This document shows positions 56,883-61,519 of a DNA stretch of 61,519 nucleotides, piece after piece (position 1 is the first letter of the stretch; each line of letters opens with the position of its first letter). This stretch comes from an uncultured Paracoccaceae bacterium (GTDB lineage: Bacteria > Pseudomonadota > Alphaproteobacteria > Rhodobacterales > Rhodobacteraceae): positions 1-61,519 of the forward strand of contig CALIZF010000045.1 of the NCBI GenBank assembly GCA_938028765.1. Direction: 5' to 3'. Below the pieces are notes generated by a model. The model ran no database searches, was not told where the DNA came from, and saw only the letters and a list, made by a program, of their open reading frames with translations. The position numbers and the translations under genes are program-made.

Positions 56883-57539
56883 ATGGGACTGTCGGACATC
56901 ACCGCCCGCCTGCGCGCGGCCGAGGCTGCGGCCGGCCGGCCCGCCGGGTCGGTTGCGCTGATCGCGGTGTCGAAGCTGCAGCCGCCCGACCGGGTCGAGG
57001 CGGTTCTGGCCGCCGGCCACCGCACCTTCGGCGAAAACTACGTGCAGGAGGCCGCTGGCAAATGGCCCGCGTGGCGTTCCCGTTTTCCGGGCGTCGCGCT
57101 GCACATGATCGGCCCCCTGCAGACCAACAAGGCCAAGGCCGCGCTCGACCTCTTCGACGCGATCCACACGCTCGACCGGCCCAGCCTTGCGCAGCGGCTG
57201 GCCACGCTCGCCCAGGCCCGCGGCGCCTGCCCCGCGCTCTTCGTGCAGGTCAACACCGGGGCCGAGCCGCAAAAGGCAGGCGTCCTGCCGGACGAGGCCG
57301 ACGCCTTCATCGCCGCCGCGACGCGCCTCGATCTGCCGGTGACGGGCGCCATGTGCATCCCGCCCGACGGCGAAGACCCCGCGCCGCACTTCCGCCTGTT
57401 GGCCGCGATCGCCGCCCGCAACGGCCTGCCGCACCTGTCGATGGGGATGAGCGCGGATTTCGAGACCGCCGTGGCGCTTGGCGCCACGCATGTCCGCGTT
57501 GGTTCGGCGATCTTCGGCGACCGGCCGGCGCGCGCCTGA
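56883..57539 (+). CDS. YggS family PLP homeostasis protein
   Basis: A 218-residue alanine-racemase-like barrel. The PLP Lys is in LIAVSKLQPPDRVEAVL, with FGENYVQEA, HMIGPLQTNKAKAAL and LSMGMSADFETAVALGATHVRVGSAIFG at the phosphate site. These proteins bind PLP and buffer its level; they have no known catalytic activity. It follows the porin terminator and probably has its own promoter. Confidence 0.95.
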   Translation: MGLSDITARLRAAEAAAGRPAGSVALIAVSKLQPPDRVEAVLAAGHRTFGENYVQEAAGKWPAWRSRFPGVALHMIGPLQTNKAKAALDLFDAIHTLDRPSLAQRLATLAQARGACPALFVQVNTGAEPQKAGVLPDEADAFIAAATRLDLPVTGAMCIPPDGEDPAPHFRLLAAIAARNGLPHLSMGMSADFETAVALGATHVRVGSAIFGDRPARA

Positions 57540-57613
57540 CCGCCCGCGAAACCGTGCTTTGCGGCGCGGTCCGGCCTGTGGCAGCCTTCCGGCGCCCATG
57601 CAGGAGGTGCCCG

Positions 57614-58600
57614 ATGTTCCCGCTCGACCGGATGCTGTCGCGTTTCGTGCAGACCGGGCAACTGACGGTGATCGACGCGGCTGGCCGGCGGCATGTCTTC
57701 GCCGGCACGGGCGATACGGCGCTGGACGGCGAGCGGGTGAAGCCCGTCACCATCCGCCTGCACGACGCGAAGCTCTACTGGCAGATCGTCCTGAACCCCG
57801 AGCTGCACATGGGCGAGGCCTACATGGACGGGCGCGTAACCATGGAGGACGGCAGCACGATCCGCGATTTCCTGACGCTGTTCTCGGCCAACCGCTATTC
57901 GCTGGGCAAGCTGCCGGTGCAGAAGGCCGCCTACCGGATCAAGTTCCTCATGCGGAAGTGGCAGCAATCGAACCGCCTGGGGGAGGCGCGGCGAAACGTG
58001 GCGCACCACTACGACATCGGAAATGAATTCTACAAGCTGTTTCTGGACCGCAACCTTCTGTATTCGTGCGCCTATTTTCGCGATCCCGGGGAAACGCTCG
58101 AGGACGCGCAGCGAAACAAGCTGCGCCTGCTGGCATCCAAGCTGGTGCTGCGGCCGGGCCTGCGCGTTCTGGACATCGGCTGCGGCTGGGGGGATCTGGC
58201 TCTCTACCTTGCGCAGCTCGAAGACGTTCATGTGACGGGTGTTACGCTGTCGTCCGAACAGCAGGCGCACGCGACGGCGCGGGCCGCCGCCCTCGGCCTG
58301 TCCGACCGGGTCGAGTTCCGCCTGCAAGACTACCGGAAGGTCGCCGACCGGTTCGACCGCATCGTGTCGGTCGGCATGTTCGAGCATGTGGGGGTGCACC
58401 ATTACGACGAGTTCTTCAGGAAGCTCAACGCCCTGATGCCCGACGACGGAATCGCGCTGATCCATTCAATCGGCAAGATGTCGCCCCCCGGGACCGCCAG
58501 CCCGTGGTACCGGAAATACATCTTCCCCGGGGCCTATTCCCCCGCCCTGTCGAGAGTGTCCGGCCTTCTGTGTATCTGTGATCTGGTCCATGCTTCCTGA
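57614..58600 (+). pseudogene. cyclopropane-fatty-acyl-phospholipid synthase, interrupted
   Basis: The first 312 codons or so encode a Cfa-type SAM methyltransferase: AHHYDIGNEFYKLFLDRNLL, the SAM site VLDIGCGWGDLALYLAQ, and SVGMFEHVGVHHYDEFF, then IHSIGKMSPPGTASPWYRKY and IFPGAYSPALS. At 58552 an IS256-family element is inserted; the frame then runs into the IS and stops at 58600. The missing C-terminal part, which in E. coli Cfa includes bicarbonate-site residues, lies beyond the window. CAGGAGG precedes the start. The enzyme, which methylates membrane-lipid double bonds, is probably inactive in this strain. Confidence 0.85.
58544..58551. repeat. IS256 target-site duplication (left copy)
   Basis: GCCCTGTC lies directly before the left inverted repeat of the IS. 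The last four visible bases of the window, GCCC (61516-61519), directly follow the right inverted repeat and equal its first half. An 8-bp duplication is the usual length for IS256-family insertion. The second half of the right copy is outside the window. Confidence 0.75.
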
Positions 58601-59122
58601 GAGGAGCAAGGACGATGACGATTTCGAACGCGTTGTTGGACGAACTGCTGAAGGGCTGCAAGCGGCCTGACGATCTGCTTGGCGAGGCCGGGCTGATGAA
58701 GGAACTGAAGGTCCGGCTGATGGAGCGGATGCTCGGGGCGGAACTGACCGCGCATCTGGGCTATGAAGCTGGCGCAGAGCCGCCAGCCGAACAGACCAAC
58801 CGCCGGAACGGGGTTGCGACGAAGCGGGTGAAAGGCTCGGATGGCGTGGTGCCGTTGGCGGTGCCGCGCGACCGGGACGGCAGCTTTGAGCCTGAGCTGG
58901 TGAAGAAAGGCCAGACCCGGATCGACGGCGTCGATGACAAGATTATCGGTCTTTACGCCGCCGGTTTGTCGGTCCGCGACATCCAGGCCCATCTGGAAGA
59001 GCTTTATGGTCTGCGGGTATCTCCGGACCTGATCAGCCGCGTGACCGATGCTGTGCTCGATGAGGTCCGCGAATGGCAGCACCGGGCGCTGGATCGGATG
59101 TATCCCATTGTAATCTTTGACG

Positions 59123-59163
59123 GTCGCCATTGTCGCGCCATTGGTCCGAGCGACAATGGCGAC
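59123..59163 (+). repeat. hairpin element copy 1 (in IS256 transposase)
   Basis: Perfect 14-bp stem GTCGCCATTGTCGC (59123-59136) and GCGACAATGGCGAC (59150-59163) around the 13-nt loop GCCATTGGTCCGA (59137-59149). It lies exactly where the transposase frame changes, between IVIFD and RVKIRD; the net insertion is about 37 nt (+1). GACG flanks both sides (59119-59122 and 59161-59164). The loop matches three other copies. Confidence 0.85.
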
Positions 59164-59427
59164 GCGGGTGAAGATCCGCGACGCGGGCAGCCGGATGGTC
59201 GAGAACAAGGCGGTTTATATTGCCCTCGGCGTCACCCGAGACGGGGAGCGCGAGGTTCTGGGCCTTTGGATAGCCGACAATGAAGGGGCCAAGTTTTGGC
59301 TGTCGGTGATGAACGAGCTGCGCAACAGGGGCGTCCAGGACATCCTGATCGCGGTCGTGGACGGGCTGAGGGCTTCCCGGAGGCGATCACAGCGGCCTTC
59401 CCGGATACCATGGTCCAGACCTGCGTT

Positions 59428-59466
59428 CGCCAATGTCTCTCGGACCATTGGCGTTCCATTGGCTCA
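59428..59466 (-). repeat. hairpin element copy 2 (in IS256 transposase, reverse)
   Basis: On the minus strand the core is GCCAATGGAAC, loop GCCAATGGTCCGA (59452-59440), then GAGACATTGGC. The outer GCCAATG/CATTGGC pairs; the inner stem is imperfect. In the transposase it adds about 13 codons in frame between QTCV and HLIRHSMNF, a segment with no counterpart in IS256 relatives. Compared with copy 1 it matches at about 30 of 39 positions in the same orientation. Confidence 0.8.
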
Positions 59467-60274
59467 CTCCATCTGATCCGGCATTCCATGAACTTCTGCA
59501 GCTGGAAGGACCGCAAGGCCCAATCGTCGGGAAAACAGTCCCCCGGGGGCTGTTGAAGAAGTCGTTTCAGGCCGACGCCGGATTTGGTCGGGCCGCGCGC
59601 AGTTCGATGATCGAACAGAGCAACAGCATCACAGCCGCCGCCAGCTTTTTGAGGTTCATCGCGATGGCGGTCATCAGAGCCTGGATTTTCATGTTTTCGA
59701 GCCCTCTGCGGATGGCTCTGGCAAGTCCGTGGAGCGTCTTTGCGGTACCGTGCGCGCCTTCGACCTGCCATCGGTGGCGGGTGTAGATCGCGTGGTCGTC
59801 TTCACCCCATGCCGCGCGTTTGCGCCGGGCGCGCAGGATGGCCGCGTGGTTGGTGACGATATGCACCCGGCGGGATGGCCCGCCCTGGGGCAGGCATTGC
59901 GCCTTGAGAGGGCAGCGCGCGCAGTCGCGCCGGTCAGCGCGATACCATCGGCCGGATTTCGTGCTGTTGCGGGGGGTGAGCCGCTTCTTCGCCGGACATC
60001 GGACCACATCGTGGTGGGGATCGACCTTGAACCGTTCGGTCGGAAAGCCCTGCGCCCCTTTGCGGCGGGGGGCGCGAAGGGGCGGGATGACGGCTTCGAT
60101 CTGTCGGTCTTCAAGGGCGGCGTAAACCCGGCCCACACCGTAGATCGTGTCCGCCGTGATCCGGTCAGGGGTAGCCCCAAGCGTTTCTTCGATAACGCCC
60201 AGGCGCTCGGTGAACCGGCCCGTGTCATGTTCCTCGCCCGTGACGATCTCCACGTCCACCACGACGCCCGCGTC

Positions 60275-60310
60275 CGGCATCGGCCTCGGACCGATGGCGG
60301 CCAGATGCCG
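60275..60310 (-). repeat. hairpin element copy 4 (in IS1182 transposase)
   Basis: Minus strand: GGCATCTGGCC, loop GCCATCGGTCCGA (60298-60286), GGCCGATGCC. The stem pairs completely except for one bulged base. It separates transposase frames 2 and 3 between TAVDG and AGVVVDV, with a net length change of +1 modulo 3. GGACG occurs on both sides of the insertion; removing one unit between them (43 nt) restores the frame. Confidence 0.83.
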
Positions 60311-60705
60311 AACCGTCCACGGCCGTGTGCTGCTTGTAGGCCGGGCGCAGCGGCGCCTTGGACGATGTCGCCATGGTCGCGTCCGGGTCGGTGCGGCAGA
60401 GCTTCTTGAACTTCCCGCTGGTGCGCGCATCCCGCTCGGCGTCGTTGGCGTCCTCGACCGCATCGAGATGGCGCGCAACCAGCGCGTCCATGCTGACATT
60501 CGCCCGGATCAGACTGGCGTCGATGTGGACGGTCTCGGCAGAAACCAGTCCCGCCGCCTGGCATTGCTGCACGACACGCGTGAAGACGAGCCGGAACATG
60601 TCTTCGCCCCAGCGCTGACGTATACGCGTCAGCGAAGAATGATCCGGCAGCGCCTCGTGCAGCGCGTAGCCGATGAACCAGCGGATCGCGAGATTGACCT
60701 CTTGC

Positions 60706-60738
60706 GGGCATCCCCTCGAACCGGTGGCGGGGATGCCC
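60706..60738 (-). repeat. hairpin element copy 3 (in IS1182 transposase)
   Basis: Perfect 10-bp stem GGGCATCCCC and GGGGATGCCC around loop GCCACCGGTTCGA (60728-60716 on the minus strand). It falls exactly at the break between transposase frames 1 and 2 (after HDRRLLR, before VNLAIRWF), adding about 35 nt. The stem sequence is unlike those of copies 1 and 2, but the loop differs from theirs by only three bases. Confidence 0.84.
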
Positions 60739-61519
60739 TCACACGCAGAAGCCGCCGGTCATGCACGATGCCGAGCAGGAAGCCCGCCAGCATCAGCCGC
60801 ACGGCGACCTCGGGATCGATGCCGGGGCGACCGTTGTCAGCGCTATAAAGCGCGGCCACTTCAGCGCGAAGCCACCCAAGGTCGAGAACCTGATCGATCC
60901 TCACCAGCACATGGTCGTCGGGGATCAGACCCCGCAACGACCCGGTGATGAACAATTCCAGTTGCCCGCGCTCCTTGCGACCCAGCACCGAAGCCTCCTA
61001 TCCATCTATAAACAAAGTGAATCAGAGGCACAGGGCTTTTTCAACAGCCCCCCCCGGACTGTTTTCTGACCCTCCTCATACCGCCGATCTGTGCCCGATC
61101 TACCAGGCCCCGACGGCCGAAGAGGCCGCCCGTCAGCTCGACGGGTTCGAGGAGAAATGGGCTGGGAAATACCCCTCTATCGCCCCGGCCTGGCGCCGGG
61201 CGTGGGCCGAGGTGATACCGTTCTTTGCCTTCAGTGCGGCGATCCGGAAGATCATCTACACCACCAACGCCGTGGAGTCGCTCAACCGGGTGCTCAAGAA
61301 GACGCTGAAAACAAAGGGCTCCTTCCCGACCGAGGAGGCCGCGACCAAGCTGATCTACCTGGCCATCCGCAACTTCGAAAAGGGCGGCCGCGCGGTTCGC
61401 GAATGGGTTGCGGCCCGCAATCAGCTGGCCATAATGTTCACCGGGCGTTTCGACGCCTGACCGTATCTGAAAACTGCATGGGCCTCATCAGATACACAGA
61501 GTTTCAGACACTCCCGCCC

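What the first reader, a model, noticed from the sequence alone, without database searches (positions are those of the whole stretch)
59123..60738. A family of four miniature hairpin elements inserted in two unrelated transposase genes
Four 31-35-nt cores (59126-59160, 59429-59463, 60276-60309, 60707-60737) share one plan: GSCAW arm, a 13-nt loop GCCAHYGGTYCGA, then the inverted arm ending WTGSC. Two lie in an IS256-type and two in an IS1182-type transposase. Each marks sequence absent from the protein family, three of them at a reading-frame change. Nothing in the known IS structures explains them. I know of no described element with this constant loop. They may be a new class of very small mobile or copied palindromic element.
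Basis: partly seen in the sequence, partly recalled or inferred. Interest (0 to 1): 0.93.

Follow-up and report, generated by a model that had tools for sequence, protein, structure and literature searches.

The report
Tiny hairpins parasitising mobile genes
Four 41-43-base hairpins that interrupt two transposase genes here belong to a family found in 151 of 295 related genomes and in genes of transposons and phages, where the copies compared with uninterrupted relatives take the place of about four to six bases; the family likely spreads as a very small mobile element moved by an enzyme still to be found.

Summary
In detail: four hairpins share one plan, and uninterrupted relatives lack all four. 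They belong to a dispersed family of 39-44-nt elements: N-TGA-stem-GCCANYGGTYCGA-stem-GAA-N', after a purine and before G. The stem covaries strongly (361 double changes, 0 of 500 shuffles). A covariance model finds the family in 151 of 295 family genomes, 7 of 240 of a class sample and 6 of 200 of a phylum sample; a pattern finds 48 viral contigs. Host genes with a Pfam match are mainly transposases and phage/GTA genes. Insertion is a substitution: 6 nt between conserved flanks become 42 at phage/GTA sites, 43 at IS3 and IS630 sites. In viral contigs 17 of 19 scored copies are in frame. Identical 41-mers sit in unrelated contexts; one IS3 with an in-frame copy exists twice, 99.9% identical. 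I read it as a REP/RPE-like palindromic mobile element specialised on other mobile elements. The mobiliser is unknown; Y1 (RAYT) transposases were not detected in 132 of 151 carrier genomes. Seven paper searches found no description.

The parts
59123..59163 (+). element 1, 41 nt, perfect 14-bp stem (GTCGCC...GGCGAC variant), sense in the IS256 transposase gene; +37 nt against the empty site
   Evidence: (47.9 bits)
59425..59467 (-). element 2, 43 nt, NTGA...GAAN' variant, antisense in the IS256 transposase gene; +39 nt, in frame and open
   Evidence: (59.3 bits)
60272..60313 (-). element 3, 42 nt, in the IS1182 transposase gene, sense; +37 nt
   Evidence: (45.6 bits)
60702..60742 (-). element 4, 41 nt, in the IS1182 transposase gene, sense; +35 nt; its outermost base pair is lost (G...A); diverged copy at the same site in a second IS1182 copy (G000:C17)
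   Evidence: (53.1 bits)
58615..59535 (+). 5' part of an IS256-family transposase gene (host of elements 1 and 2), split by the IS1182; limits approximate
59548..61049 (-). IS1182-family element (host of elements 3 and 4), ends GGCTGTTGAAGAA/TTTTTCAACAGCC, inserted in the IS256; ends read by eye
61061..61460 (+). 3' part of the same IS256-family transposase gene; limits approximate

Best explanation
The four hairpins are copies of a dispersed family of 39-44-nt palindromic elements that, where an empty site could be compared, take the place of about 4-6 bp inside transposase, phage and gene-transfer-agent genes, and they likely spread in trans as a folded single DNA strand handled by an unidentified enzyme. 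Shown: the consensus, the covarying stem, the purine before and G after, the 6-for-42 exchange at the sites examined, the host genes, identical 41-mers in unrelated contexts, and open in-frame copies in phage/GTA and IS genes whose flanks show purifying selection. Inferred: that the unit is non-autonomous; that the mobile form is a folded single strand (from the conserved hairpin, the foot nucleotides and the lack of a target duplication); that the link to mobile genes comes from tolerance plus carriage by those vehicles; and that where the frame stays open the host protein works with about 12 extra residues, while out-of-frame copies break the transposase.
For: Structure: 91.1% of cells paired, 361 cells changed on both sides, 0 of 500 shuffles as high on four of five measures and 2 of 500 on the fifth, slid controls 22-38% paired (128 distinct of 135 sequences); the outermost pair is GC 84, AU 24, UG 7, CG 6, GU 1 and unpaired 6 of 128. 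Spread: 151 of 295 family genomes; class sample 7 of 240 (two of them own genome or same family), phylum sample 6 of 200 (own genome and five same-family). Empty sites: 6 nt in nearly all empties against 42 in every filled row at six phage/GTA sites: GTA_ITDG 21 filled of 34 rows, GTA_PGD 8 of 35, GTA_HAD 4 of 35, GpA_TGD 3 of 25, GpA_LDE 2 of 26, portal 4 of 20; a seventh, helicase, 3 of 3 filled with 42 (nine empties have 0, 3 or 9 nt; rows include overlapping loci). Mobility: one 41-mer in an IS630, three IS3 orfA and two further unrelated contexts; within-genome presence/absence at about 86-90% flank identity (L068 against L074/L075). Function with the insert: IS3 pair L187/L188, 1276 bp with 1 mismatch, one 321-codon frame through the element; five IS5-like copies in G118 share one element, in frame as I read L176-L178; pN/pS filled against empty 0.14 and 0.23 (GTA_ITDG downstream), 0.07 and 0.50 (portal upstream), 0.22 and 0.22 (GTA_PGD downstream). 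Site: -1 purine 99%, +1 G 86% in 74 non-redundant 41-nt copies.
Against: No mobiliser was found, and no gene bracketed by two copies stood out (two loci inspected). Each site tends to have its own stem variant (by eye), and trees show patchy presence with few changes (7, 2, 4 and 4 on 26, 14, 17 and 26 rows), so much of the spread could be inheritance plus recombination rather than new insertion. The single-strand form is not tested by any search. In G171 and G018 all copies that I looked at (8 of 11 and 8 of 16) lie in a repeat that looks intergenic, so a strict link to mobile genes does not hold there. IS3 (+37, immediate UGA) and IS630 (+37) copies are not visibly decaying, which a simple gene-breaking element does not predict. 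Some filled rows do carry stops in the flank: IS5_LLID 3 upstream and 2 downstream of 8, GTA_PGD 1 of 5.
Confidence: 0.55

Rival explanations
1. The hairpins do not transpose now: they are old inserts that spread only by homologous recombination and by transfer of the phage, GTA or IS gene that carries them.
For: Each site has its own element variant (by eye); element and flank diverge together at the IS630 site by eye; phages and GTAs recombine a lot (established knowledge).
Against: Identical 41-mers in unrelated sequence contexts; seven copies of differing stems in one IS3 (L112); related copies with and without an element inside one genome.
Confidence: 0.17
2. The hairpin is skipped by the ribosome or removed from the RNA, so that even frame-shifting and stop-bearing copies leave a working protein, like the mobile bypassing elements of yeast mitochondria (recalled).
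For: IS3 orfA copies bring +37 nt and, as I read the letters, an immediate UGA; their 6 filled rows have pN/pS 0.49 and 0.56 against 0.46 and 0.42 in 8 empties, at dS 0.4-2.1 with no stop in the flanks; two IS630 filled rows 0.28 and 0.11. Some sites are at catalytic motifs by my reading (IS5 LLID|ST, terminase FLDE|VD).
Against: 32 of 102 confident copies are antisense, where the RNA hairpin differs; viral copies are 17 of 19 in frame and 16 of 19 open, and TGA is in frame in only 11 of 59 sense TGA copies, which a skipped element would not need; independent late insertion into live genes gives the same pN/pS; several replaced positions are variable (portal, GTA_HAD).
Confidence: 0.08
3. They are REP sequences of the RAYT (TnpA-REP) system.
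For: Short hairpins with conserved foot nucleotides, dispersed, non-autonomous.
Against: Y1 transposase PF01797 detected in 19 of 151 carrier genomes and 11 of 144 non-carriers; none of the 18 aligned copies has a GTAG foot; many sit in genes.
Confidence: 0.06
4. They are relatives of the CGTC repeats and Rickettsia palindromic elements of alphaproteobacteria.
For: Alphaproteobacterial, partly intragenic, no dedicated transposase, as described for CGTC repeats (passages of PMC3733652); the perfect-stem variant reads CGTC on the other strand when followed by G, as in window element 1.
Against: Stem and apical part do not fit: CGTC stems are 8-9 bp with loops of 4-5 nt, against a 12-pair stem and a 13-nt apical block here.
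Confidence: 0.12

Closest known systems
Rickettsia palindromic elements (RPE) and CGTC repeats
   Same: Small palindromes in alphaproteobacteria, found inside genes, no dedicated transposase known (passages of PMC3733652)
   Different: Here the apical 13 nt are constant while the stem varies with compensation; host genes found are mainly those of other mobile elements; bases are lost at the site; stem and loop lengths differ
GTAG REP sequences with RAYT transposases
   Same: About 40-nt hairpins with conserved foot nucleotides, non-autonomous, dispersed
   Different: Foot is NTGA/GAAN'; carrier genomes mostly show no Y1 transposase; many copies are inside IS and phage genes
MITEs
   Same: Small, non-autonomous, inverted-repeat
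   Different: No target-site duplication seen (bases are lost); far shorter (recalled); no parent IS noticed
Byps, mobile translational bypassing elements of Magnusiomyces mitochondria (recalled)
   Same: Hairpins of a few tens of nt, several per gene, inside ORFs
   Different: Bacterial, both orientations, mostly in frame in viral contigs; no evidence of bypassing

Membership tests
GTAG REP / RAYT | GTAG tetranucleotide at the 5' foot of the hairpin | tested here: not met
   Alignment of 18 copies: no GTAG at the foot; the regex set could not have found GTAG by design
GTAG REP / RAYT | a RAYT (Y1_Tnp) gene in the carrier genome | tested here: not met
   PF01797 in 19 of 151 carrier genomes, 11 of 144 others (cross-table by hand; drafts may miss a gene)
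CGTC repeats / RPE | stem of 8-9 bp, loop of 4-5 nt | tested here: not met
   12-pair stem plus 3-pair apical stem, apical block of 13 nt; definition from passages of PMC3733652
CGTC repeats / RPE | CGTC at one end | tested here: inconclusive
   Possible only in the TCG/CGA variant (17 of 258), e.g. window element 1 read on the other strand; the commonest copies read GTTC or ATTC there
RPE | in-frame, open insertion in genes | tested here: met
   Viral contigs 17 of 19 in frame, 16 open; all sets 57 of 102 in frame, 52 open; translation itself not tested
MITE | target-site duplication on insertion | tested here: not met
   Empty sites hold nt (mostly 4-6) that the filled copies lack
MITE | ends shared with an autonomous IS | not tested
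   No systematic search for an IS with these ends was run
Bypassing elements | ribosomes skip the element | not testable with these tools
   Needs protein or ribosome data
Known structured RNA | match to an Rfam family over its cut-off at the element | tested here: not met
   Window stretch: three matches, all below cut-off (one, RF00498 at 21.9 of 70 bits, lies on element 1). Ten loci: one over cut-off, the ALIL pseudoknot at L112:995-1095, an IS3 signal that overlaps the edges of two copies

The most novel reading that the evidence does not exclude
A new mechanistic class of mobile DNA: a 41-nt hyperparasite of phages, gene transfer agents and insertion sequences, with no gene of its own, that exchanges about six base pairs for a hairpin at purine-N5-G sites and so slips an in-frame 12-residue tag into the proteins of its vehicles.
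Probability: 0.35. Interest if true: 0.82.

Novelty: new variant of a known kind. Interest (0 to 1): 0.68.

Why it matters
If right, about half of the sampled genomes of one family (by the named hits, most likely Rhodobacteraceae) carry a mobile unit of only about 41 bp, easily overlooked because it appears as a broken transposase or a 12-residue insert. It raises three testable questions: what moves a 41-nt hairpin, why bases are exchanged rather than duplicated, and how terminases, portals and transposases tolerate (or avoid) the insert. It could also explain some pseudogene calls in these genomes and offers a natural insertion-tolerance map for phage and GTA proteins.

Tried and rejected
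Chance: rejected (covariation, empty sites, spread). Two of the eight exact loop matches in the own genome are not elements. Arms copied from the target (foldback or template switching): rejected, because empty sites lack the arm sequence and unrelated sites share it. A 45-nt length difference between two IS3 copies (L189, L190) looked like an empty site but is an unrelated deletion. Selenocysteine signal (UGA followed by hairpin): dropped, because TGA is in frame in only 11 of 59 confident sense TGA copies and is CGA or TCG in others. RAYT as mobiliser: not supported. Insertion at catalytic motifs as an intron- or intein-like mark: mixed; percentiles of local conservation at nine sites were 0.24-0.99 and the script stopped with an error at the tenth. 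A structure prediction of the GTA tail protein with the insert failed (mean pLDDT 36) and is not used. Paper searches (listings and abstract starts; term passages seen of PMC3733652, PMC12306157 and PMC3281130) gave no description of this family; most subscription papers and bioRxiv are not in that library.

Limits of the counts: loci were fetched because they hold an element, so filled/empty ratios are not frequencies, and its rows include overlapping loci. The regex set demands a pairing outer base and one of five foot triplets, so its N-N' and foot counts (GC 185, AT 46, CG 14, TG 9, GT 3, TA 1; TGA/GAA 213, CGA/GAG 24, TCG/CGA 17, others 4, of 258) show variety, not pairing; pairing is taken. 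The alignment was fitted to the model. Of 258 unique elements 252 were scored and 102 had a confident coding frame on both sides; the other 150 are not counted. 47 of the 51 in-frame rows were scanned (four repeated an ORF), and 50 of 50 of the others; members without a match are not counted by the tool, and 2 of 27 families are not shown. Trees used 26, 14, 17 and 26 rows after removing duplicates and short flanks. The IS630 comparison has only two distinct filled rows.

Full report
What is in the window. The window lies in contig C45 of a 2.94-Mb draft genome. Its last 3 kb hold an IS256-family transposase gene split by an IS1182-family element. The family boundaries put them at 59123-59163 (+), 59425-59467 (-), 60272-60313 (-) and 60702-60742 (-). 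An uninterrupted Paracoccus yeei IS256, 88% identical over 870 columns, lacks the first two (37 and 39 nt shorter). A more distant P. yeei IS1182, 63% over 1330 columns, lacks the other two (37 and 35 nt). Element 2 therefore keeps the frame and the other three do not. A second, partial IS1182 copy in the same genome keeps a diverged copy of element 4 at the same site, so that insert is probably older than the split of the two copies.

The family. The exact loop occurs eight times in the genome and six of these sit in the hairpin. Aligned copies gave a covariance model. The consensus is purine, then N-TGA, a variable stem, GCC-ANY-GGT-YCGA, the other arm, GAA-N', then G. On 128 distinct sequences found by the model 91.1% of cells pair, 361 cells differ on both sides against 99 in shuffles (0 of 500 as high), and slid controls pair at 22-38%. 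The outermost pair is GC 84, AU 24, UG 7, CG 6, GU 1, unpaired 6; the next is UA 99, CG 23, GC 2, UG 1, unpaired 3. That alignment was fitted to the model, which leans it towards the structure; the first, unfitted MAFFT alignment of 18 gave 85.8% and 43 double changes against 13.9. In a regex set of 258 the foot is TGA/GAA in 213, CGA/GAG in 24 and TCG/CGA in 17 (the regex allowed only a few feet). I read TGA/GAA as a tandem G-A mismatch that TCG/CGA replaces by Watson-Crick pairs; the geometry is inference.

Where it occurs. 151 of 295 genomes of the family match at E <= 0.001 (132 of 260 good ones). In a class-wide sample 7 of 240 match, of which two are the own genome and a same-family genome, and in a phylum-wide sample 6 of 200, the own genome and five same-family ones. 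48 IMG/VR contigs match, none of the INPHARED phages with one 43-mer at E <= 1, and the best plasmid hits are Paracoccus, Leisingera, Cereibacter, Rhodobacter and kin.

Host genes. Of 47 in-frame host ORFs, 18 match the GTA TIM-barrel tail protein, four the GpA terminase, two a lambda-type portal, two or three a UvrD/Dda-type helicase (one in a viral contig), and others DDE, rve, IS66, IS21 and Mutator transposase families. Families matched by the 50 out-of-frame pieces are transposases, integrases or a recombinase, plus IstB-type ATPases. Four members also match GH113, a glycoside-hydrolase barrel, probably the GTA barrel (inference). Members without a match exist and are not counted by the tool. 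In G018 and G171 the copies that I looked at (8 of 16 and 8 of 11) sit in a repeat like TTTGGTCCAAAAATCCCGGGGG...GGGGCTGGCCCCC that looks intergenic.

The exchange. With protein-anchored flanks, nearly all empties hold 6 nt where all filled rows hold 42 at six phage and GTA sites, i.e. two codons become fourteen. At the IS3 orfA and IS630 sites filled rows hold 43 nt (11 of 20, 7 of 7). At the IS5 LLID site they hold 42 (6), 44 (2) or 41 (2) of 23 rows. With DNA flanks and fixed element ends the empties hold mostly 4 or 5 nt, up to 8. No target duplication is seen. The base before the element is a purine in 99% and the base after is G in 86% of 74 non-redundant 41-nt copies.

Frame and orientation. 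Of 102 copies with a confident coding frame on both sides, 70 are sense and 32 antisense, 57 in frame and 52 in frame and open. In viral contigs 18 of 19 are sense, 17 in frame, 16 open. The in-frame length follows automatically from 41-for-5, so the informative part is the codon phase: 43 of 48 sense in-frame copies put the first element base at codon position 2, where TGA is split, and five put TGA in frame. Part of that bias can come from the purine-N5-G site, which favours codon position 1. The encoded peptide runs like GEAGNATGSSDPPN.

Are carriers alive? pN/pS in flanks of filled GTA, portal, GpA and IS5 genes is close to or below that of empties; in IS3 orfA it is slightly higher (0.49 and 0.56 against 0.46 and 0.42). 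Some filled rows have a stop in the flank (IS5_LLID 3 and 2 of 8, GTA_PGD 1 of 5), as do some empties. One IS3 with an in-frame copy exists twice with one mismatch in 1276 bp. Five IS5-like copies in G118 share an element, in frame as I read L176-L178, while copies differ from L175 by 6-9%. So in-frame copies do not stop their vehicle. Harder to explain are IS3 orfA copies, with +37 nt and an immediate UGA, present in well-separated IS3 lineages (two changes over 14 rows) and not visibly decaying. Independent late insertions at a preferred site, trans-mobilised copies, or bypassing could each account for them; I favour the first.

Mobility. One 41-mer occurs with eight distinct flanks that fall into at least four unrelated contexts (IS630; IS3 orfA three times; a context shared by L208, L279 and L305; and L261). 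The same 41-mer lies upstream of an IS3 in a P. yeei plasmid, in a context like that of L208. This needs either insertion or an unlikely convergence. The enzyme is unknown: Y1 transposases were detected in 19 of 151 carriers and 11 of 144 non-carriers, and no gene bracketed by two copies stood out in the two loci inspected.

Reading. The simplest account is a non-autonomous palindromic element of the broad REP/RPE kind, with its own sequence, an unusual exchange at the site, and a strong link to other mobile DNA. The link may reflect tolerance in dispensable genes and carriage by those vehicles rather than targeting. I do not file it as a REP, a CGTC repeat or a MITE, because defining features of each were tested and not met.

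Noticed in passing
window 59532-59541 and 61056-61065: A second tiny palindrome, AAAACAGTCC...GGACTGTTTT, is split by the IS1182, which therefore sits in its loop. The pattern AAAACNRTCCNNNGGAYNGTTTT occurs in 3 of 41 genomes and similar palindromes can be read in L370, L135 and the G118 IS5.
   Followed up: partly
window 57062-58600: An open frame ending in a cyclopropane-fatty-acid-synthase-like gene (recalled resemblance) runs into the left end of the IS256, so the IS256 appears to interrupt it.
   Followed up: no
L090 against L176-L178 (G118): One copy holds a second element where three near relatives have only GTT left, which fits a deletion between two CGCCA repeats; elements may be lost by slippage and leave a scar.
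   Followed up: partly
L179-L183 (G171), L143-L145, L191-L194 (G018): A repeat of these genomes carries this hairpin, and in G171 also a shorter TGA-GCGCC-GCAA-GGCGC-GAG hairpin just before it, which hints at a wider set of TGA/GA-footed hairpins.
   Followed up: no
L112:851-1902: Seven elements in about 1 kb of one IS3; an ALIL frameshift pseudoknot (995-1095) overlaps the edges of two of them.
   Followed up: partly
G000:C17:3847-4137: Second, partial IS1182 copy with a slightly decayed copy of window element 4 at the same site.
   Followed up: yes
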